A stretch of 64,000 bases of DNA from Dioscorea cayenensis subsp. rotundata (Eukaryota > Streptophyta > Magnoliopsida > Dioscoreales > Dioscoreaceae). The DNA lies in NCBI RefSeq assembly GCF_009730915.1, contig NC_052489.1, positions 24,173,916-24,237,915 of the forward strand. Direction: 5' to 3'. The notes under the pieces were generated by a model, which did not search any database, was not told where the DNA came from, and was given only the letters and a program-made list of their open reading frames with translations. Below, in pieces: positions 28,727 to 64,000 of this stretch. How positions within the stretch are numbered: the stretch's first letter is position 1; every line of letters starts with the position of its first letter. The position numbers and the translations under genes are program-made.

Positions 28727-31356
28727 ATGGCGGTCAACCTAGTTAATGGGCGATGCTATTTGACACCGGTAGTGGAGACCTTAGCTGAATTGAAAGATAA
28801 CATGACCCCTCGACACTGGGAGATCATCAGAAGGACACCGTTTGCGGCGTTCATTTGAGTGGAAGCTATATACCAAGAGAGGGCCCTTCTTGATTCTCTA
28901 TTGCAAAGATGCGATGGTCGAACCAATAAATTCGAGGATCGGGGAAAAGGCTGGCTGAGTTTCGAGGCCTCAAGATGTGGCCAGCGTTCTTGAGTCTAGC
29001 GTTGCGATGGCGGCCTTGATCGTCTTTCGAAGAAGAAAACCCGGTCGGCGTTCGAAGGGAGATATTTATCAAAAACCCTACGAGAGACACGGAGACTCTA
29101 TCAAAGGGCACTCTTGTGCAGCGTATTCGACGAGAGGAAGAAGAAGATAATTTTTGTCAAACTCGATGGTGTACCTCGTGGGATGCGATCCTTTTCCCAA
29201 AATACATCATGCTCGGTTCGAGCCCGGATCGTTGATTATGTCGATGATCTACCCGCCATGGGGCGATACGCGTAGGCGCGAGCGACGCATGAGTGGCTTA
29301 TGGAGGACATTCCACAGCGACCGCTCGAGTGCAGAGATAGATGCTGTGGGAAGAAGACCCAACCACGGGGGTATATTAAGGGTTGCTTTCGGTCGCGCTT
29401 AACGTCCGGTTTTATGAGTGGCCGGAGCAGGGGAAGAAAGTCTGTTTCAGTAAGATCCCAAGGATGCTGTGCTACGGTGAAAGTACTTACCGGAAGCAAG
29501 CGACGGTAGAAACCAGCTTGTTATCGCTCGATGGAAAAAATGTAATAAATCATGGACAATGTTTAACAGAAGTCTTTAATGTTTAAACATATTATTTAGC
29601 GTTTAATAGAAGGGGCGTTCACGATCATTGCGCAGTCCCTCAAAGAACTGAGCACTGGGTCGAGCAGGCGTCGGGATTTGGCGAGCGGCGACATCATCGA
29701 GGTGCCCATTCCAAAAGCAGCCACATTCGAAGAGACTTGCGAAAAAGAGGAGAACAATCGCCTCTGTCTCCATCGCCGGTGACGATGAAACAATAGCAAC
29801 ACCATCGGGTCGATCTCTATTCTTGAGTCTGTCGCCGTTGATAACAAGAGATCGTTAACTCTCTTGTTAACGAAATCCCTGACCCGGTGGAACCGGTTGC
29901 CGAGAGTGTGGCATCAAAGATGGACACAATCCCTGAAGAACAAGAACAAGCTAAGGGTTTGTCTCTCGATGATGCTGTTGCCATGGCCATGGTTGAAAAG
30001 ATCGTTGAATCTGTTGCTGTGGCCGTGGCCGTGGCCGACAGTACCGCATCGAAGCAGGACACAATCCCACAACAACAAGAACCATGTAAGGATGTATCTG
30101 CGGTTGATGCTGTCGCCGTCGTCCCCGCATCGAAGCCAGACACAATCCCACAACAAGAACAACCATATAAGGATGTGTATGCGATTGATCTTTGTCGTCA
30201 GTCGTCCCGCATCGAAGGAAGATCTTCTCGGTCTTTGAACACCGTGAAGGCTCAGCGACGAGTGCCCCAGTGAACACCCGACCGAGCGAGCGAGAGAGAT
30301 GATCGAGGCCATTCAACAATGGGACGAGGCGGCTCGGAAAGCTTTTTATTCGAAGAAGAAAAAAATGGTTTGGCGGTCGCGTCTTAACAAATCTGAGCGA
30401 GGGAGTTGATAAGGATCTTCCTCAACTGCTCTATAGACAGGTAAGTTTAAAGTTTTTATGATATTGTTTAAAGTTGTTATGATAGTGTTTAAATGTTTAT
30501 ATATTATCATTTAATTTATGTATTTAACGTTTAAATATTTATAATATCATTTGAAAATTGCTTATATCATTTAAATATTTACAATATGGGCTAATTATAT
30601 CTGTTATCGTTTAACCTCGAAGACTGTCGTGTGGAAGAATGACCATTGTCGACCTCACACGGGACAAACTATACACTATGCTTGAGGGGAAGGAGATGGT
30701 CGCGAGATGATGTGATGGAGCAGCTTTCGTATGCATAATACAAAAAGTCATTGAGCAAAGTGCCATATCCTTACAAGAAGCGCCTCCATCACACGACCAG
30801 TCGTCGTTTATGTCAAACCAGGACGACGCACATGAAACAACTATGGCTATGATCGGGGATGTTGTGCGCAACCTGCATGAAGTTCAATTTGTCATCCTCC
30901 CAATAATCATGAATGGCCACTTCCATGTCGTTGTCCTTGACAATGATAAACAAGAATACATGCATTATTCTTCATGCGCGGGGTACAATAAAGACGCGTT
31001 GGACATGGTAAGTTCTTTAATTATGTCCGATTAATAGTGTTTGGTATTTAATCGATATTCTAATCTCAACTTGCATATGTCGACAGCTTAATCTATTCGA
31101 TAATTGTGTCAATATGGAGTTCGGTGAGTCGGCGACGGCAAAGTACCCACTCGTACACGACATGAAAACCCCACGCCAAAAACAAGGAAGCATCGATTGC
31201 GCCGTCTACGTCATGCGGTTTATCGAGCAATTAATTTGGGGTGAGAAGCTACGGCTACCGCAGACAGACGTTCCTTACCTTAGATTAAAGTATGTTTCCC
31301 GCATACTTAAGGAGGGGAGGGCAGCCGGCGTCCATGAGAAAGGGGGTTCGTCATAA
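28727..31356 (+). pseudogene. Ulp1-type (C48) cysteine protease gene of the MULE, decayed
   Basis: The N-terminal part (28727-29550) starts at ATG 28727 and reads RHWEIIRRTPFAAFI, then has a stop. Further on, in shifted frames, it carries pieces of the plant-mobile-type domain known from these proteins (YVDDLPAMGRYA in one frame and CFSKIPRMLCYGESTYRKQ in another). A repetitive middle (29880-30200) encodes DTIPQQQEP-like units. The protease domain is at 30810-31007 and 31087-31356, joined by a good GT-AG intron. The histidine lies in GHFHVVVLD, and the active-site cysteine block is QGSIDCAVYVMRFIEQL with Cys kept. Where Ulp1 enzymes usually have YDS (the aspartate), this copy reads YMHYSS, so the triad looks incomplete. 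At least three frame breaks lie upstream of the protease exons. Confidence 0.75.
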
Positions 31357-50146: not shown

Positions 50147-53100
50147 TTAGGCCCATCTTAATGGATCATCATCATCAACATAGCGCTTCCAGAACCAGTG
50201 CTGCTTCCAGACTCTTTCGGTTATCTCCTCAATCGGTATATTCTTAGTCTCGGGGAGGAAGAAGAGGACAAAGATGGACATGACTACGACCCAACCAGCA
50301 AATAATATGAAGATGCCGGACTTTAATTGGCAAAGCATTGGGAGAAAAGCCTGAGCAATGGCAAAGGTGGAGAGAAGGTTCACGCATACAGCCACACTCT
50401 GCCCGGCCGGACGCACCTCCAGTGGAAATATCTCACTGGGGATGAGCCATCCGAGAGGCCCCCATGACCACGCGAAGGATGACACAAAGACGCAGACCAT
50501 GACCACAACCAGGATGGCGTAGCCATGGCTTAAGTTGTCTGAATGGTCAGTCACTTTGATGCTGAAGACCACAGCAATGATCACTTCAGAGAGGAACATT
50601 TGCACACCAGCCTCTAAGAGCAACGCACGCCGGCCCACTTTGTCCACGAAGTAAATCGACACAACAGTGGACAACACATTCACTATTTGAATGATCACAG
50701 CTGCGAATCCCAGTGTTTTGAACAGCACAGGCGTATAGAAGATGATATTGTTGATGCCAGCGAATTGCTGGAAGATCTGCAAGCATTGCATTTGAGAAAC
50801 CAACAAATCAACGGATTTCATACTTTTGAAATATGTTTTATATATACATTAACGATTGCAGGTTAGCAGTACCTGAAGAAAGATGGCGACAATGAGTTGG
50901 GGGCGATAGCGTCGCTGGAGAAGGTTACGGTAAGGATGCTTGACCTGTTGGGCAATGCGGCTGGCCTCAAGGATCTCATTGAACTCAGGCTCAACATTGT
51001 TTATCCCGCGAATGCGCTTGAGCACGGCCTTGCCTTCCTCGAGCTTGCCCCGCTCAATTAGACTGTTAGGCGTGTCGACCACTAACAGTGAGCCTACCGT
51101 CAATAGAAGAGCTGGGATTCCGGCAAGTGCCAGTGATAGTCTCCATCCCCACGGGTGTATCCTATATGCATTGATCCATTAGTAATTGTTATACATTTAA
51201 TTTAATTTCATTGATAACAATAAGAATTCTATGAATGTGACTGACTTATTGGTTCTATAGTTGATGAGGTTGCCAAGGAGAATGCCGATAGTGACATTGA
51301 GCTGAAACAAGATGTTGAGACCCCCACGGATTCTTGTTGGAGCAATCTCTGATAGGAATAAAGGGACAGCCTGCCAAGTGCATTTTGTAATTTACATGCA
51401 GTACATTTAAAGGAGGGGTCAGCTTTTTCATGATGTGAGTATAGTAAAATATGTATATTAGACGGCTAACCTTTAGGGTGTTTGGATCCAAAGAATGGCT
51501 ACCATATGAATGACATTGATTATATACACTAATATAATCCTATATTTGAATACATAACTATTAGAATGAAAATAAGTTATGTAGATAATGTAATTATTTA
51601 CCGTTAAAGAATTGAACTATCCCAAAATTACGGAGAATGGGGAGTAATGAATACTTCCTCCGTTCCTTTTTACTTGTCATATTTACATAATTTACACCGA
51701 TTAAGAAAAGTTAGGTAAAGTTAGTTGATTGCCTATATTTTATAAAAAAATCCATTATTTTCCAAAACTACCCTTATTTAAAACTCCACTAGTGGAGTAT
51801 AAAATTTAATATTTAGTTGATTATGATTTATTGAAAATTGTACAAGTATATTAAATTAAAGGATAAATTTGAAAAAAATTATTTAATACTGCACAAAGTT
51901 TTAAATGTGACAAGTAAAAAAAAACAGAGAAGACCTCTAAAATGTAATAACTAAAAAGAAATGTAGGAAATACTATTTATGGTGAAATGATACTTTTACT
52001 TTGTTGGGTTATCAAGGAAATAAACCGGATTAGACGTGACTTTCTATGGTCTGGGACGGATTTGATTCATCCGCGCTGCAGACTCATAAACTGGCATAAT
52101 ATCTGTCGTGACCGCGACCAAGGGGGTTGGGGCATTTTGGACCTACATAATTTCAATCAGGCGTTAGTGGGAAAATGGTGGTGGAGATTTATGTCGGACC
52201 GCTCATGGTGTGGCGCCGAGGTAATTAAGTTCAACTATGGTATGGACCGTTGGAATATGTTCCCTAGGCAATCGGGGAGAATTTCCTTTTTTTGGAAAGG
52301 GGTGTTAAATTGTTTTCCGGCTTTTCGAAGTTGCATTGGGCATGACATTAACTATGGGAGGGAGACGCTATTTTGGAAAGATAGCTGGTTAAGTGGTAGA
52401 GCACTGATGTATATTTGGAAGGAGGAATTTGGTAGATCTTTGGAACCGAATGGAACTGTTAGTGACCTGTTTTTTCTTTTGTCACGGTCCCCATTCATGT
52501 AGGAGAAGGAAGTGAAGACTTTTATGGATCAGAGGCAAGTGCAGGAGGGGGTGATCGAAGACTCTAAAAGGTGGCGTCTTACTAGGAATGGGGTGTTCAT
52601 AGTGAAATCATTCTACACATTCCTGACTAATGGTGGACTGCGGTGCCCTTTGGCGAAATTTTTCTGGAAAAGTAATTGCCCGAAGAAAATAAACATTTTT
52701 AATTGGCTAGCTTGGAAAAAAACATGATTCTAACCTTGGAGAACTTAGAAATCAGAAGATGTAACCGCCTACCGACGGCGACCTGTGTCTTGTGCAATGC
52801 GGCGACTGAGACGGTGGATCATCTCTTCTTGCAGTGCCCGTTGGCAAAGCAGGTGTGAAGATACTTCAATAGTTTGCTCGGTCTCCCGGATCTGCCAGAT
52901 TGCCTTCATCTGGTTTGGGGGCTTGGAGATTATCTGTCAGACCGGCCTGTAGAGAGTTAGGGGTCTTAGTGGGGAAAACGATTGTGTGAAATCTTTGGCT
53001 TGCTAGAAATGACTGCATGTTTAATGATATTATGATGTCTGCTCATGCTCTAATTGTGAAGATTGATCGAATATTATTATCCTGGCTTTCTACAGTTAGT

Positions 53101-56100
53101 GGCAGATCGAGAGCAAAGATGGAGGAGCATTCTACTACCATCAGGCGCAGTTTGGAGTTTCTGAGCTCGATGTGGGAGGAGCAGGTTGTAGCATCCATTT
53201 CGGATGCAGGGCTATCTTCGCATTCTGACTAGTCGACTGAGTTCCTAGGGGAAGGTTGAGGCGGTTGTTTAGCCTCGTTTTGTGCTTTTATGTTGGTTTA
53301 TATATGTTTTGTTCCACTTCTTGTGATTGGAATTTGTATGTTGTTCTTGTTTTAATTGAAGTGGTTTATCCACCTTTTAAAAAAAAATGATACTTTTACC
53401 TATGGTAAAGATTTAATTAAATAAAAAGCAATAATTTAAATAAATAATTATAATAAATAAATATTAACATAAATGGACTTATTTAAATATTTAGTTAGAA
53501 TAATTAAATAATATTAATTAATATGAATCGTTTAATATACATATAAATATTTAGTAACTTGCCTATGAGCTTTACTTTTTTTTTTTACTCAATCTTGTCT
53601 CTCGTCTATATATATATATATATATATATATTTTACAATATCACTTTTCTATCAATATTAGACATTGAGAGGGCATTTATTTCAATGGAAAAAGTGATAT
53701 AAAGTGAGAGAACTGCTACATTTTTTAAGCATGGGAAGTAATATCACTTTCAGTATTTTTTGTGTTCATTTGTCAAAAAAGTGATAATAGAATCGAATAA
53801 AAAAGGTGTTGAGTGGAGTTCTATTAATACAAAACAGGGACTTTGGAAGTGCAGGGAAGTCAGTTTTTATAGAGTGACTCATTTCCTCTCACTTTAATAA
53901 AAACAATGCTAATATGGGTTTAGCTTAAAATACACTTATGTTCTTAGGACTGATATTGATCGGCCAATGAGTTTGATATTAGAAGGCCCGAGCAGAACTG
54001 GTAAAACGGCATGGGCTCGGTCTTTTGGCCCCATAACTATATCTGTGGCCACATGGACTTCAATGCAAACACGCTCCGAAATGATGTTATGTACAATGTG
54101 ATTGATGACGTCGCTCCTCAGTATCTCAAGCTAAAGCACTTGAAGGAGTTAATTGGTGCACATCAAGCCTAGCAGTCAAACTGTAAGTACGGGAAACCTG
54201 TTCAGATCCCAGGTGGTGTTCCTGCTATTATATTATGCAATGCTGGACCTGATTCCAGCTATTCAAAGTTTCTTGATAAATGTAAAAAATATTTCTCTAA
54301 GGCACTAGACCCGTCAGGATGCGGTGTTCGGGTTCATTTCCTTTCCCCTCTTCCGGCTCTCAGGTGACCTGTCTGGTTCTACATCGGTGACAGTGTGATC
54401 TACAAATTGCGATCATCACATACACATCTCTGTCGGCTACGTGCAATATGGATTCCCATACCGGACTCCTCATTACTGCACCATAGGTTGAGAGAGGCTT
54501 ATATGTTTGGCAGTTAGATAATCCCTTGTATTTCAAATCGATTGAACATCACCAACGACCCTTTTGGTAAACTGTATGACATTGTCGTGATTCAGTTACA
54601 GTTCAACTATAATTTGAGGAGGGCAATTCAAATTCACAAATGCTAATTCACATTCAGATTTTTGACAACCCTACTTCCGAGTGGCTATGGTTTCCTTCAT
54701 GTATTTAAAAATCGTCTTTTCTAAATAATCTTAGTATTATTTCCGTTAACAATGTAATTCATGCTGTGTCTTACTTTGTTAGCGGACTAGACCAACATGT
54801 ACTCAACGTAGAACAGGATTTTAATGTAACTTTGAAAGGTGTCTAAGTTAGGAAGACGCAGAGATTGTAAAAGAGGGAGGTGTTATCTTGGACGTTAAGA
54901 CCATGCTCTGAGATTTAGGATGAACCACTGGAGAGAGTCCTTTGGGTAAGGGTGAGTGAGAGTGGCCCTCCGGCAATCTAGAGAGGGTTATTCTTTATCT
55001 TTGTGAGGATGAGTGTGAAAGTTGTATTCATTGTTTTTCATCTCTTTTACTAGATTGTTGATCTTCGGGCTCGACCCCCAGACGTAGGCATGTTGTACCG
55101 AAATGAGTAACCAATTCATGTGTTTCTTTTCTCCTGTGTGTTTGATTTTACATTGAGTGTGTGTTTACTCTACATGACAGATTGAGTGAAAATCACCACT
55201 AACACTCCTCCGAAACTAACTATATATGTACCTAAAATTATAAATAATAATTAGATTGTGATTAATAACTGAGCCTGACCTGATTAGCAAAGCCAACACC
55301 GCAACCAAGTAGAATTCGACCAACGATGAGCATGGCCAAATTTTGGGCTGAACCATTGAAAATAACACCGGCAATGAAGAATGCTCCGGCGATGAGCATT
55401 GTTAGCCGGCGGCCAAGCCTTCTAGTTGTATAGGATGCGAACAATGTGGCTATTAGTCCGGCTAAGTAGAACAACGATGTGAACAGTTGTAGGCCTTGGT
55501 TGCCAAATTTGCAGTAGTTGTTCTCTAGGTGTTTTTCTTTTTCTTTACTATATACTTTAGGGAAAAATTTTAGGAGAAAATCATTCATTGATGTAACGCC
55601 ACCTGTTATCATTAAAATATATGCTCATTAATTAATTATAAGTTAGACTTGACATTAATTTTGTAGGGCAGCAAATATAATAGTTACTAAAATATGATGG
55701 CCTACTTTTGATCAGTAGGCATGTAAATTGATGCCCTCTTATCTTTTAGAGGGAAAAAGGTAAAAGATAAAGCAAACCATACTATCCCTATTAAAACAAG
55801 CTAAAAAGAAAGGAAAAGATGTCCCCCCTTTTGCAAGAAGAGTTTAAAATCATTAGCCATTAATTTTTTTCATAGATACATCGTAGAAACAGTTTGGCTT
55901 CCATTGTTTTTTTCTTTTGGCTCTGGCCAGAAAGAAGAGAGATTAATGATTTTTTTTTAATAATTAAGTATGTCACATAGACTTTTCAAAAACCAAAATA
56001 AATTTATTAAATTTAAAAATCAAAATAGTTTGAAATATGTGATGATTTATATTAAACTATACCACAATATCTATTTCTTTACTATAATAATATTTAAAAA

Positions 56101-56366
56101 TCAAAATAGAATGGATGAAACTAAAAAAGCAATGAAACACGTAGCCCATGTTCATTAAACAATCATACATGAATGAAAACAATAATATTAATCCTAAAAA
56201 TTAAATTATATATAAAAAAAAGGTTCTTCTCACCAAAAACACCTATATCATAGCCAAACATCAAGCCTCCAGTTGCAGCCATGATGCAGGACATGATCAC
56301 TATGGGAGTGATCTTGGCTTCAAACTGCCTGCCGGAGCCGGCCGACACTGCAAAACCTCCGGCCAT
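50147..56366 (-). CDS. Sugar transport protein, STP/MST hexose-proton symporter
   Basis: A major-facilitator protein of the plasma membrane that imports hexoses with protons. Exons in transcript order are 56234-56366, 55280-55602, 51246-51370, 50873-51161 and 50147-50776, giving 499 residues, close to the usual 505-520. Visible marks: [18 protein letters not shown] near the start, RRLGRRLTM between helices 2 and 3, [14 protein letters not shown] and [15 protein letters not shown], the [12 protein letters not shown] loop end, [14 protein letters not shown] (helix 7), [30 protein letters not shown] and [11 protein letters not shown]. An in-frame ATG 30 bases upstream is less likely. Intron 2 (51371-55279) is 3.9 kb and holds a LINE, a geminivirus fossil and an LTR piece, yet coding phase is preserved throughout. 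Confidence 0.94.
52000..53384 (+). mobile_element. 5'-truncated LINE with target duplication
   Basis: The last 1.4 kb of a plant non-LTR retrotransposon. AAATGATACTTTTAC occurs on both sides (51985-51999 and 53385-53399), and the 3' end is A-rich. The frame at 52000-52500 carries the plant LINE post-RT region ([33 protein letters not shown]). Past a stop it continues with [15 protein letters not shown], and the zinc-binding RVT domain follows ([19 protein letters not shown] near 52780-52840). Several stops show it is dead. It lies antisense to the sugar transporter. Confidence 0.9.
53945..54850 (+). mobile_element. Endogenous geminivirus fossil (Rep, TrAP and REn parts)
   Basis: This is a fossil of a begomovirus-like complementary-sense region. 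From left to right it shows the helicase half of Rep (Walker A GPSRTGKT at 53985-54008, then [11 protein letters not shown]-type and NVIDDV blocks and a [10 protein letters not shown] block to about 54330), a zinc-finger-like part of TrAP (about 54390-54500), and the overlapping REn gene opening with [12 protein letters not shown] at 54448 and continuing to about 54850. The gene order and overlaps match begomoviruses. The Rep N-terminal half, coat protein and origin are not seen. It is broken, with perhaps half a dozen breaks, and looks old. It lies inside intron 2 of the sugar transporter, antisense to it. Confidence 0.9.
54858..55200 (+). mobile_element. LTR-like fragment next to the geminivirus fossil
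   Basis: A GGGCTCGACCC-GACGTAGGCA block preceded by AGAGGGTTATTC and a T-rich stretch resembles the R/U5 part of plant Ty1/Copia LTRs. No internal region, primer site or second LTR is seen, so this is a fragment or solo remnant. The boundaries are approximate. Confidence 0.45.
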
Positions 56367-60399: not shown

Positions 60400-63300
60400 T
60401 CCTCCCCTTAGCTTAGAAATTCTTCAGTCCTAAAGCCTCTCTATAATACTCAAATTTGCTGGATGAGAGAGCCTTAGTAAAGACATCTGCAACCTGCTCA
60501 TTGGTGCTGCAATAAACAACATCTATCTCACCATTGCTCACAAGATCTCGAATAAAATGGAATCGAGTATCAATGTGTTTAGTGCGACCATGCATAGAAG
60601 GATTTTTAGTGATTGATATGGCTGATTTATTGTCACAAAATATGGCAGTAGGTTCACATGATTCTTCACTCAAATCCTTCAAGAGACGCCTTAACCAAAC
60701 TGCTTCACAAGCAACTGAAGTAGCTGAAAGATATTCAGCTTATGTACTCGATAGAGCTGTAATCATTTGCTTCTTCGAACACCAAGCAATTGTTGCAGAA
60801 CCGAGAGAAAAAATCCACCCAGTTGTGCTCCTTCTATCATCTAATGATCCACTCCAATCGCTGTCAGTGAAACCTCTGAGCTTGCAATCAATTGAATGGA
60901 AATAATGAAGCCCAAAACTCAAAGTTCCAAAGATATAATGCATAATTCTTTTCACAACACCCAAGTGGTGCATAGATGGAGCTTGCATATATCTAGAGAC
61001 AATACCAACATCATACATGATGTCTGGCCTCATATGGGTTAAGTAGAGTAGACCTCCGACCATCATTCTATACCGAGAGGGATTAGCACATCCTGAATTG
61101 TCCTTCAATTGCAACTTTCATTTGCATTCATAGACGTAGAAGTTGGTTTACAATTCAACATTCCAGACTGTTTGGGCAACTCCTTTGCATATCTTTGCTA
61201 TGACACAAATAATGATCCCTTCGATTGCTTCACCTCAAGCCCAAGAAAATATTTGAGAGGTCCAAGATCAGTCATTTCAAGTTTCTTCATCATACTTTCA
61301 TTAAATTCTAGTAGCATTTCACATGATGATCCCATGTAGATAATATCATCTACATAGAGACACAACAACAATAAATCTGAATCTCCTTTGAGCTTCTTAT
61401 AAACAGTGGGTTCATTGACACTTCGAGTGAAGCCAAATTGCTGGAAATGTTGATCAATGCAGTTGTACCATGCCCTTAGTGCTTGATGAAGCACATACAA
61501 GGCTCTCTGTAATTTATAGACATAATCTTCCTTCTCTTTCACAACAAAACCTTTAGGTTGAAAAACATAAACTTCTTTCTTTAATTCACCATTCAAGAAG
61601 GCGGTCATGACATCTAACTGAAAAATACACCAGTTTCTCTGTGCACTTAGAGCAAAGAAGACTTGAATGGTCTCCATTCTAGCTACTGGTGAGAAAACTT
61701 CAGTTAAATCAACACCCTCTTATAGTGAATACCCCTTGGCAACAATCCTTGCCTTTTTCCTAAACACAAAGCCATCTGAATTGTACTTCGTCTTGTACAC
61801 CCACCCATTTCAAACAACAGCATGTTTGCCTTCTTGTAAGAGAGAGAGCTTCCAAGTTTTGTTCTTATTTATAGCTTCCATTTCGTCTTGCACACCAGCT
61901 AGCCAACCTTCATCTTTGATAGCTTCTTCATAAAGTACTGGGTCTACAGAGATTAATACAAAAGAGCATGTGTTGTAGATATCATTCAAGTCTCGGTATC
62001 TTACTGGTGACTCATCTTCTCCATTGGAAGTAGTCTGAAGCTGAGAAAGTTGGGGAGATCTCAAGCCGTTCATTTATTTGATCTAATGGCTGAGAAATTC
62101 CTTCTTGATCAGCTTCAACATCTTCCTCCACATCAGCAATAGGTGTGAGGTTTGGTGTTGCTGAGTCAAATGAGTTCGACCAGTCCCAACGAAGATTCTC
62201 TAAAAAGTTCACCTCCCTGCTGACTTGGACACGTCTGGTAATAGGGTCCAGACATTTGTAAGCTTTAGAATCCTCCGTGCAGCCAATGAAAACTGCCTTT
62301 GACGACTTGGCATCAAGCTTTTTTCTGATTTGTGGGTCAATGAGAACATAGAAGATGCATCTGAAGACGCGCAGATGGTCAACCTTGGGATCTTCTTCAG
62401 TGCGCTCGTGGGAGATCTGTTGAGAATGTGAATTGCAGCAGCAACAGCTTCAGCCCACAACTCAATAGGGATCTTCATCTTCGCCAACATTGTTCTGGTC
62501 ATCTCCGTGACAGTACAGTTCTTGCGCTCGGCCACGCCGTTTATTGAGGAGTCCGGGGAGCCGCCAGTTGATGCTTGATGCCAGTGGCGTTACAGAAGGT
62601 TTTAAAATCTCTTGAAGTAAACTCGCCACCTAGATCGGTACGGAGAGACTTTAGTGATAAGGAGTATTGATTTTCCGCCAAAAGTTTGAAGCTTTTAAAG
62701 ATCCGTAGAGCATCAGATTTACTCTGAATAAAATACACCCAACTATACCTCGAATGATCGTTAGTTAACAGAAAAAAAAATACCGATTACCTCGAGAGAA
62801 GGTGTTTTCATCGGTCCAACTAAGTCACCATGGATCAATTCGAGTGATGCCATTGCCCGCTGAGCTTGATCTCTTGGAAACTCCAACCTTGCTTGTTTTC
62901 CAATAGAGCAAGCTTCACATGGTGATGTATGTACAATGGCTAGTACACAATCAACCAAATGCTGTGCTGATAGCTGTTTCAAACTTCTCAAATTTAAGTG
63001 GACATACCTCCTGTGCCACAACTTTGAAGTGCTTTTAGCTCCATGTGCAATATGAGCTGAATCTACATCATTTGCATTGAATGGAAAAAGCCTATGAGTT
63101 ATCGAGCGAACTTTGGCCACCGACATGCTTGTTCGAGACTCCTTAATTAAGCATTCTCCACCTGAAAACTCAACATTATAACTAGTTGACATGAGCTGCC
63201 CGACGCTGAACAAGTTATGTGCCAAATTTGGCACAAATTGGACATTGGAAAGAATATGATTCTTCCCAGAGCTTGCTTGAAGTAAAACAGTCCCAACTCC

Positions 63301-64000
63301 TGCAACTTGGAGTGTATTACCATCACTTAATCTAATGGTTTGATGAGGACCTTCTTCAATACTGTGGAAGAGTGCTTTGTTCCCTGACATGTGGTTGGAG
63401 CACCACTGTCAATGAGCCAAATACCTCCAACTTTATTCTTTGAATCAACACTTGCCATGAAAAATACACCTTCATTCAAATCTTTTGTTTCTTCAGTCAC
63501 ATTCAAAGCTTTTTTTTTTGAACCAGCAATGGGCTTTTATGTGCCCAACTTTCTTACAATGGTGACATTGCACTCTACTTATGTTTTGTCTAAACTCAGG
63601 CTGAGTTTCAGTTGCTTCTGAGCTTCGGCCACGGCCTCTACCTCTTCCACGACCTCTAAAAACTCCTCTCCCTTGACCTCTTGTGAGATTTGTAGAGCTC
63701 CTTCCTACTATTAGTTCAGATTTCACTTGGAGAGCCTTTACTTCCACATTATCTGAATACATGTCAAGTCGACCTTCATGACCTTTCAAAGAGCCACTTA
63801 GCTCATCAACTGTCATCTATGACAGGTCTTTAGCTTCAACAATTGAGGATACAACATGAGAGAATTTGGATTAGGGATGTCAACGGGGCGGGGATTTACC
63901 GGGGGATACATTCCCCGGCCCCGGCCCCGATTTTCCACCCCTATCCCCGACCCCGGCCCCGAATCCGAATACGGGGATTTTTTTTCCCCGTCCCCGTCCC
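60400..64000 (-). mobile_element. Ty1/Copia internal region, runs past the window end
   Basis: A fossil polyprotein in Copia order on the minus strand: the GAG zinc knuckle CHHCKKVGHIKAHC (about 63550), the protease region (about 63400-63250), the GAG-pre-integrase with LWHRRYVHLNLRSL (about 63020), the integrase core (about 62750-62300), reverse transcriptase (about 62000-61200, with YVDDI) and RNase H (about 61110-60420, with STNEQVADVFTKAL). It is broken, with at least half a dozen breaks. The 5' LTR lies outside the window, so age cannot be read from LTR divergence here. Confidence 0.9.
63872..64000. mobile_element. End of a hAT-type element nested in the Copia element
   Basis: The sequence TAGGGATGTCAACGGGGC marks the start, followed by CCCCG/CGGGG-rich DNA typical of plant hAT MITEs. 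The window cuts it off, so the second end and the target duplication (candidate ATTTGGAT at 63864-63871) cannot be checked. Confidence 0.65.

What the first reader, a model, noticed from the sequence alone, without database searches (positions are those of the whole stretch)
53945..54850. Begomovirus-like Rep/TrAP/REn fossil inside a sugar transporter intron
The stretch shows Rep helicase motifs (Walker A GPSRTGKT), then TrAP-like and REn-like blocks in the gene order and overlap of begomoviruses. DNA-virus integrations of this kind are documented in few plant lineages, chiefly yams and Nicotiana. It sits antisense in intron 2 of a preserved host gene, beside an LTR fragment that could have helped its capture or spread.
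Basis: partly seen in the sequence, partly recalled or inferred. Interest (0 to 1): 0.88.

Follow-up and report, generated by a model that had tools for sequence, protein, structure and literature searches.

The report
Decayed geminivirus fragment in plant intron
An intron of a plant sugar-transporter gene holds a broken 0.9-kb piece of an ancient plant virus that exists in well over a hundred copies in this genome; the piece itself is an ordinary dead fossil, but the way its sister copies end hints at how such viruses get into plant chromosomes.

Summary
Window 53938-54828 (+) is a fragment of an endogenous begomovirus-like element (EGV). The own genome gives 45 further match rows (69-88% identity), and sister loci carry clear REn and Rep domains. 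The window copy scores as REn (E 1.8e-5). Its Rep part is weak alone and rests on colinearity. TrAP is not supported here, nor at cut-off in the genome scan. The piece lies antisense in intron 2 (51371-55279) of an apparently intact sugar-transporter gene, between two dispersed repeats that are truncated where it begins and ends. None of 19 sister loci carries those repeats, so they probably did not spread it. It looks like dead filler DNA. Yam EGVs are published (Filloux 2015; Sharma 2020): a new member of a known kind. Beyond the finding, many sister copies end at the viral origin nonanucleotide on the REn side (14 of 34 and 15 of 38 rows) but rarely on the Rep side (2 of 29, 1 of 24). That fits integration of molecules nicked, perhaps led, by Rep.

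The parts
53938..54828 (+). Fragment of an endogenous begomovirus-like element (EGV), truncated at both ends
   Evidence: 46 own-genome match rows including itself; sister loci continue past the edges
53938..54098 (+). Rep remnant, end of central domain with Walker A; frame then broken
   Evidence: Gemini_AL1_M E 0.014, 15.9 bits, below the cut-off of 24; colinear with sister loci whose ORFs score 3.1e-17 and 3.2e-15
54005..54364 (+). Rep C-terminal pieces in another frame, split by a stop
   Evidence: No Pfam match; assigned by DNA colinearity with sister loci only
54487..54828 (+). REn (AL3) remnant in several frames
   Evidence: Gemini_AL3 on pieces 54518-54643 (3.9e-5), 54709-54843 (0.0016), 54487-54567 (0.14); genome-wide match 54569-54721 E 1.8e-5
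53668..53937 (+). Truncated copy of a dispersed MITE-like repeat; family members continue past 53937
54827..55220 (+). 5'-truncated, LTR-like dispersed repeat; family members continue upstream and mostly end near 55220
51371..55279 (-). Intron 2 of the host sugar-transporter gene (3909 bp)
   Evidence: GT/AG borders and phase read from sequence
55280..55602 (-). Host exon 2
   Evidence: Sugar_tr E 9.3e-17 on the enclosing ORF; borders read
56234..56366 (-). Host exon 1 with ATG
   Evidence: read
50147..51370 (-). Host exons 3 to 5 with short introns (inner borders not fixed)
   Evidence: Sugar_tr E 1.7e-50 and 1.2e-15; exon 3 acceptor read

Best explanation
The stretch is a dead remnant of one copy of a large, old family of endogenous begomovirus-like elements. 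It came into, or was left in, intron 2 when a chromosome break was repaired by end joining, and it now fills the gap between two repeats that lost their facing ends. It makes no intact Rep, TrAP or REn and has probably drifted neutrally for millions of years; at most it adds some sequence to the antisense strand of a host intron. Shown: family membership, truncation of all three partners at the two junctions, broken frames, no visible constraint. Inferred: end-joining repair as the mechanism, and lack of function.
For: Sister loci with REn (E 3.4e-33), Rep catalytic (5.3e-35) and Rep central domains (3.1e-17) in natural ORFs. Window REn match E 1.8e-5 genome-wide. Of 19 sister loci compared by DNA, none shares the window's flanks. 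The left repeat is cut at 53937 and the right one at about 54827 although their relatives continue, while EGV relatives continue past the edges. Shared bases at the joints are 1 and 2, read by eye. Rep and REn pieces are interrupted by stops and frame changes. Of 27 window-private changes, those in the two Rep segments fall 6/3/6 and in REn 6/3/7 over codon positions 1/2/3, overlap counted in both.
Against: End joining is read from the end state only; no empty site from a related plant was available. The codon-position counts are small. Transcription and small RNAs over the interval could not be checked, and published yam EGVs do give small RNAs (Filloux 2015), so a regulatory effect is not excluded.
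Confidence: 0.8

Rival explanations
1. The fragment entered this intron directly from an infecting virus as a separate integration, not from an already endogenous copy.
For: The flanks are unique to this copy among 19 sister loci; many EGV copies elsewhere have mutually unrelated flanks. In the unrooted tree the copy branches singly, not inside a tight subgroup.
Against: It lies among endogenous copies in that tree (between groups with support 99 and 100, terminal branch 0.059), and it lacks the origin end that many sister copies keep. Neither point is strong.
Confidence: 0.3
2. A transposable element (the MITE-like or the LTR-like neighbour) picked up the virus piece and carried it here.
For: Both neighbours are dispersed repeats that abut the piece exactly.
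Against: Both are truncated at the junction, none of 19 sister loci carries either, and no matching second repeat arm was seen on the other side.
Confidence: 0.05
3. The piece has been kept because it acts as an antisense or small-RNA source in the host gene or against related viruses.
For: It lies antisense in a preserved gene; small RNAs and transcripts of yam EGVs are published (Filloux 2015).
Against: No constraint visible in 27 private changes, which would not exclude a role of the RNA; no expression data here.
Confidence: 0.08
4. The Walker A block belongs to a cellular or other non-geminiviral helicase.
For: The single 62-aa Rep piece alone matches only generic P-loop proteins weakly in the PDB (best E 0.015).
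Against: REn follows in order, and sister loci carry Rep catalytic, Rep central and REn domains.
Confidence: 0.01

Closest known systems
Yam endogenous geminiviral sequences EGV1/EGV2 (Filloux et al. 2015, PMC5014472; abstract, whole results section and conclusion read)
   Same: Begomovirus-like rep and ren, no recognisable TrAP, many dispersed copies plus tandem arrays, origin nonanucleotide present in some units (seen here in L014, 2438-bp spacing)
   Different: The window copy is an 0.9-kb piece without origin, Rep catalytic domain or open frames. Whether it is EGV1 or EGV2 was not tested, since their sequences were not compared.
EGV Rep homologues of 42 angiosperms (Sharma et al. 2020, PMC7758297; abstract, sections 3.3 and 3.7, passages)
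   Same: High copy number and clustering; most Rep homologues truncated or interrupted; D. alata with 148 rep copies, and potential nuclear shuttle proteins there
   Different: The parts that I read describe no map of where copies end
Nicotiana geminivirus-related DNA (GRD; Bejarano 1996, Murad 2004; not held, known from citations in other papers)
   Same: Degenerate begomovirus repeats in a plant nucleus
   Different: Different host and lineage; details not compared

Membership tests
Endogenous begomovirus-like element (yam EGV type) | REn (Gemini_AL3) homology | tested here: met
   E 1.8e-5 genome-wide over cut-off; 3.9e-5 on a piece, 23.9 of 24.1 bits
Endogenous begomovirus-like element (yam EGV type) | Rep homology | tested here: inconclusive
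   Window: 15.9 bits, below cut-off, no AL1 match listed at this place (150 of 163 candidates scored); sister loci met
Endogenous begomovirus-like element (yam EGV type) | TrAP (Gemini_AL2) between Rep and REn | tested here: not met
   No match in the window pieces; 1 sub-cut-off match in the genome, E 0.038. Filloux also found none in yam EGVs, so this counts against the TrAP claim, not against EGV membership.
Endogenous begomovirus-like element (yam EGV type) | Gene order Rep then REn on one strand, colinear with fuller copies | tested here: met
   Sister loci align over 53937-54828, in full or in part
Endogenous begomovirus-like element (yam EGV type) | Nuclear integration | tested here: met
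   Inside an intron, joined to dispersed host repeats on both sides, on a 31.6-Mb contig; assembly taken as given
Helitron-like or Rep-mobilised element (family level) | One element end clusters at the origin nick region | tested here: met
   14 of 34 and 15 of 38 REn-side rows end within 12 bp of the nonanucleotide; 17 and 16 run past it. Not met by the window copy, which lacks that end.
Helitron-like or Rep-mobilised element (family level) | Second end also fixed | tested here: not met
   Left ends scattered; starts at the origin only 2 of 29 and 1 of 24 rows, with weaker detection on that side
Helitron-like or Rep-mobilised element (family level) | Defined target site | not tested
   No empty sites available

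The most novel reading that the evidence does not exclude
The family spread by a T-DNA-like, Rep-linked route. Rep nicks the virion strand at the origin nonanucleotide and stays on its 5' end, and that end is joined precisely into plant DNA while the other end is lost at random. Copies therefore end at the nick site on the REn side with unrelated DNA beyond, but rarely on the Rep side. The window fragment would be a later broken remnant of such a copy.
Probability: 0.45. Interest if true: 0.7.

Novelty: new member of a known kind. Interest (0 to 1): 0.42.

Why it matters
The window copy itself adds one more dead EGV to a known family. The family matters more: Filloux et al. proposed Rep-driven, Helitron-like spread and said that whole yam genomes would be needed to learn more. 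The ends of the copies in this genome are such a test. The one-sided clustering at the origin points to Rep-nicked DNA as the integrating molecule, which can be checked in any EGV-rich plant genome.

Tried and rejected
Rejected: LTR or MITE capture; non-geminiviral helicase; a TrAP remnant (the locus of the one weak genome match, L025, has no DNA similarity to the window piece at E 0.001). A fixed 892-bp repeat unit, suggested at first by the shared query ends, was rejected because sister loci continue past the edges. Looked for relatives in IMG/VR with a Rep piece and a sister REn ORF: none confirmed. PDB searches of two Rep pieces gave nothing specific. Other EGV pieces in the window: only two short matches (22 and 36 bp). 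The left neighbour at 51951-53229 looks like an old LINE by eye, but two pieces gave no Pfam match at E 0.01.

Literature: seven searches (of these 69, 72 and 77 were aimed at the nick site or the integration mechanism) and passages of PMC3187698, PMC3198968, PMC8626973 and PMC6293997 showed no report of EGV copies ending at the nick site. Bejarano 1996 and Murad 2004 are not held, so a description there is possible.

Full report
What is there. Window 53938-54828 on the + strand is DNA of an endogenous begomovirus-like element. A search of the own genome (584,211,761 bases, 2,249 contigs; the window is contig C19, 24173916-24237915) gave 46 match rows including itself, 69-88% identical, best foreign E 4.4e-289 (40 of 207 candidates scored, and some copies give two rows). 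Ten natural open frames of sister loci were scanned: four match Gemini_AL3/REn (E 3.4e-33, 2e-29, 4.9e-28, 4.3e-24), three match Rep domains (Gemini_AL1 up to 5.3e-35, Gemini_AL1_M up to 3.1e-17), one only weakly (AL1_M, 0.018), and two match nothing. In the window, pieces searched apart match REn at 54518-54643 (3.9e-5) and 54709-54843 (0.0016), weakly at 54487-54567 (0.14), and the Walker A end of Gemini_AL1_M at 53913-54098 (0.014, below cut-off). An unrelated family matched a neighbouring piece at the same E of 0.014, so the Rep assignment rests on colinearity with the sister loci. A genome-wide REn scan lists 141 rows (150 of 165 candidates scored; about 134 places if seven pairs of neighbouring rows are joined, by eye), the window copy among them at 54569-54721, E 1.8e-5; 0 of 14 control genomes respond. 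The Rep catalytic domain has 140 listed rows, none at this place (150 of 163 scored). TrAP has one match in the genome, E 0.038 and below cut-off, at C843 inside a REn match. So Rep and REn are right and TrAP is not supported.

Setting. The host gene runs on the minus strand with Sugar_tr matches in its exons (E 9.3e-17, 1.2e-15, 1.7e-50). Exon 1 is 56234-56366 and exon 2 55280-55602; exon 3 starts at 51370. Borders are GT/AG and the phases fit (read); the inner borders of exons 3 to 5 were not fixed. Intron 2 is therefore 51371-55279, and the virus genes point against the host gene. That the plant is a yam is inferred from the element family.

Junctions. To the left lies a dispersed repeat of MITE type, cut at 53937. 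Twelve relatives were fetched, all chosen because their match ran to that point; all 12 continue beyond it, most of them with the same further sequence. To the right lies a dispersed LTR-like repeat; the nine relatives fetched mostly end near 55220, and several share about 0.5 kb upstream of the joint at about 54827. EGV relatives continue past the joints, most of 15 shown on the left and all 17 shown on the right. One base (53937) and two bases (54827-54828) are shared by the partners, read by eye. None of 19 sister loci shares the window's flanks (hits above 80 bits, 1.5 kb each side; some loci overlap). Three partners, each broken at the same two points, with short shared bases, are what patchwork end joining leaves. 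That the neighbours carried the virus piece finds no support.

Decay. In an unrooted tree of 16 sequences (GTR+G) the window copy branches singly between a group holding L002-L006, L009, L012, L013 and L017 (support 99) and a group holding L007, L008, L015 and L018-L020 (support 100). Nearest by identity are L003 (88.1%) and L002 (86.6%). Its terminal branch is 0.059 substitutions per site. At plant neutral rates recalled from the literature (0.65-1.3e-8 per site and year) that is very roughly 5-9 million years; it is a time since the split from the sampled copies, not an insertion date. Private changes show no clear excess at third codon positions (Rep segments 6/3/6, REn 6/3/7, 27 in all). 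Fixed differences between two other clades do in Rep (5/1/12 and 10/10/22) and only slightly in REn (21/12/25). The counts are small.

Beyond the finding: where sister copies end. In an array-interior copy (L014) the origin nonanucleotide recurs at 2438-bp spacing. Two queries spanning it, from two lineages, were searched genome-wide (40 of 44 and 40 of 58 candidates scored, 46 rows each). Of rows that begin on the REn side, 14 of 34 and 15 of 38 end within 12 bp of the first base of the nonanucleotide, 17 and 16 run more than 40 bp past it, 3 and 6 end earlier, and 0 and 1 end at +13 to +40. Of rows that reach the Rep side, only 2 of 29 and 1 of 24 start within 12 bp of it. The two queries find partly the same copies, and a copy can give more than one row, so the counts must not be added.

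I read the junctions of 18 loci chosen because they seemed to end there. 15 end between -7 and +9, two run on weakly to +16 and +17 (L018, L008), and one passes through (L064). Two pairs are duplicates of each other (L062/L063, L066/L067), and L005 and L059 continue into an inverted EGV copy. That leaves 11 apparently independent ends. Their next 300 bases are unlike one another and unlike the 25 EGV loci they were compared with, apart from a stretch of about 75 bases, more than 200 bp beyond the end of L011, shared with three other loci. Left ends of held copies are scattered through the Rep side. In 8 of 9 looked at, no near-match of the nonanucleotide lies within 260 bp upstream of the left end; L002 has a one-mismatch AT-rich match. 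L016, one of the 8, starts about 34 bp on the REn side of the origin.

Reading of this pattern. In the virion strand the preserved end is the 5' end made by Rep's nick, to which Rep is covalently bound by established knowledge of geminivirus replication (recalled). A precise 5' end and a ragged 3' end are the hallmark of VirD2-led T-DNA (recalled). So Rep-nicked, perhaps Rep-led, molecules are a good candidate for what integrated. Against: about as many rows run through the origin as end there; detection on the Rep side may be weaker because the stretch between origin and Rep start is less conserved (several starts at +81 to +156); the origin is also a recombination hot spot and a hairpin that may break by itself (recalled); and copying after integration could inherit one end. 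The window copy lacks this end and is no evidence either way.

Known and new. Yam EGVs with rep and ren but no TrAP, in many copies, are published (Filloux 2015, PMC5014472: abstract, results and conclusion read), and so is their wide occurrence in plants (Sharma 2020, PMC7758297: abstract, sections 3.3 and 3.7, and passages). This copy is a new member of a known kind. Filloux's conclusion raised Rep-mediated, Helitron-like spread; Liu 2011 (PMC3198968, passages) raised self-mobilisation by Rep. I found no report of copies ending at the nick site in the searches; the Nicotiana papers were not held.

Noticed in passing
own genome, e.g. C273:48433-48960, C16:8631066-8631581: 72 rows match Gemini_coat (PF00844; that it covers coat and BR1/nuclear shuttle is recalled). 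Of 52 rows taken over the cut-off, 23 lie within 6 kb of a REn match and 18 of these 23 are on the same strand as REn, unlike a normal begomovirus DNA-A. Filloux saw no coat gene in EGV1/EGV2; Sharma mentions shuttle-type genes in D. alata.
   Followed up: partly
queries, +94 to +124 past the nonanucleotide: A second cluster of ends (10 of 34 rows at +94 to +120; 7 of 38 at +98 to +124), at three places within about 1.3 kb of a coat match (C974, C8, C10, by eye). This may be a common region shared by A-like and B-like units.
   Followed up: no
C4:9297333/9297337 (in L005) and C334:11759/11761 (in L059): EGV pieces in opposite orientation meet within a few bases of the origin at two places with related sequence.
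   Followed up: no
L013/L014 (C10:19546242-19552575) and C10:19554403-19556477: Tandem EGV units of 2438 bp, 98% alike, followed by four origin-region matches on the other strand at roughly 640-bp spacing.
   Followed up: no
window 60413-63816 (-): Copia-type retrotransposon remains: RVT_2 E 1.4e-49, Pol_BBD 2e-21, gag_pre-integrs 1.7e-13.
   Followed up: no
window 31021-31356 (+): Ulp1-type protease piece (Peptidase_C48, E 4e-5), perhaps part of a transposon.
   Followed up: no
window 53385-53544: AT-rich dispersed repeat, at several places present twice about 250 bp apart, just after an A-rich tail of a LINE-like stretch (by eye).
   Followed up: no
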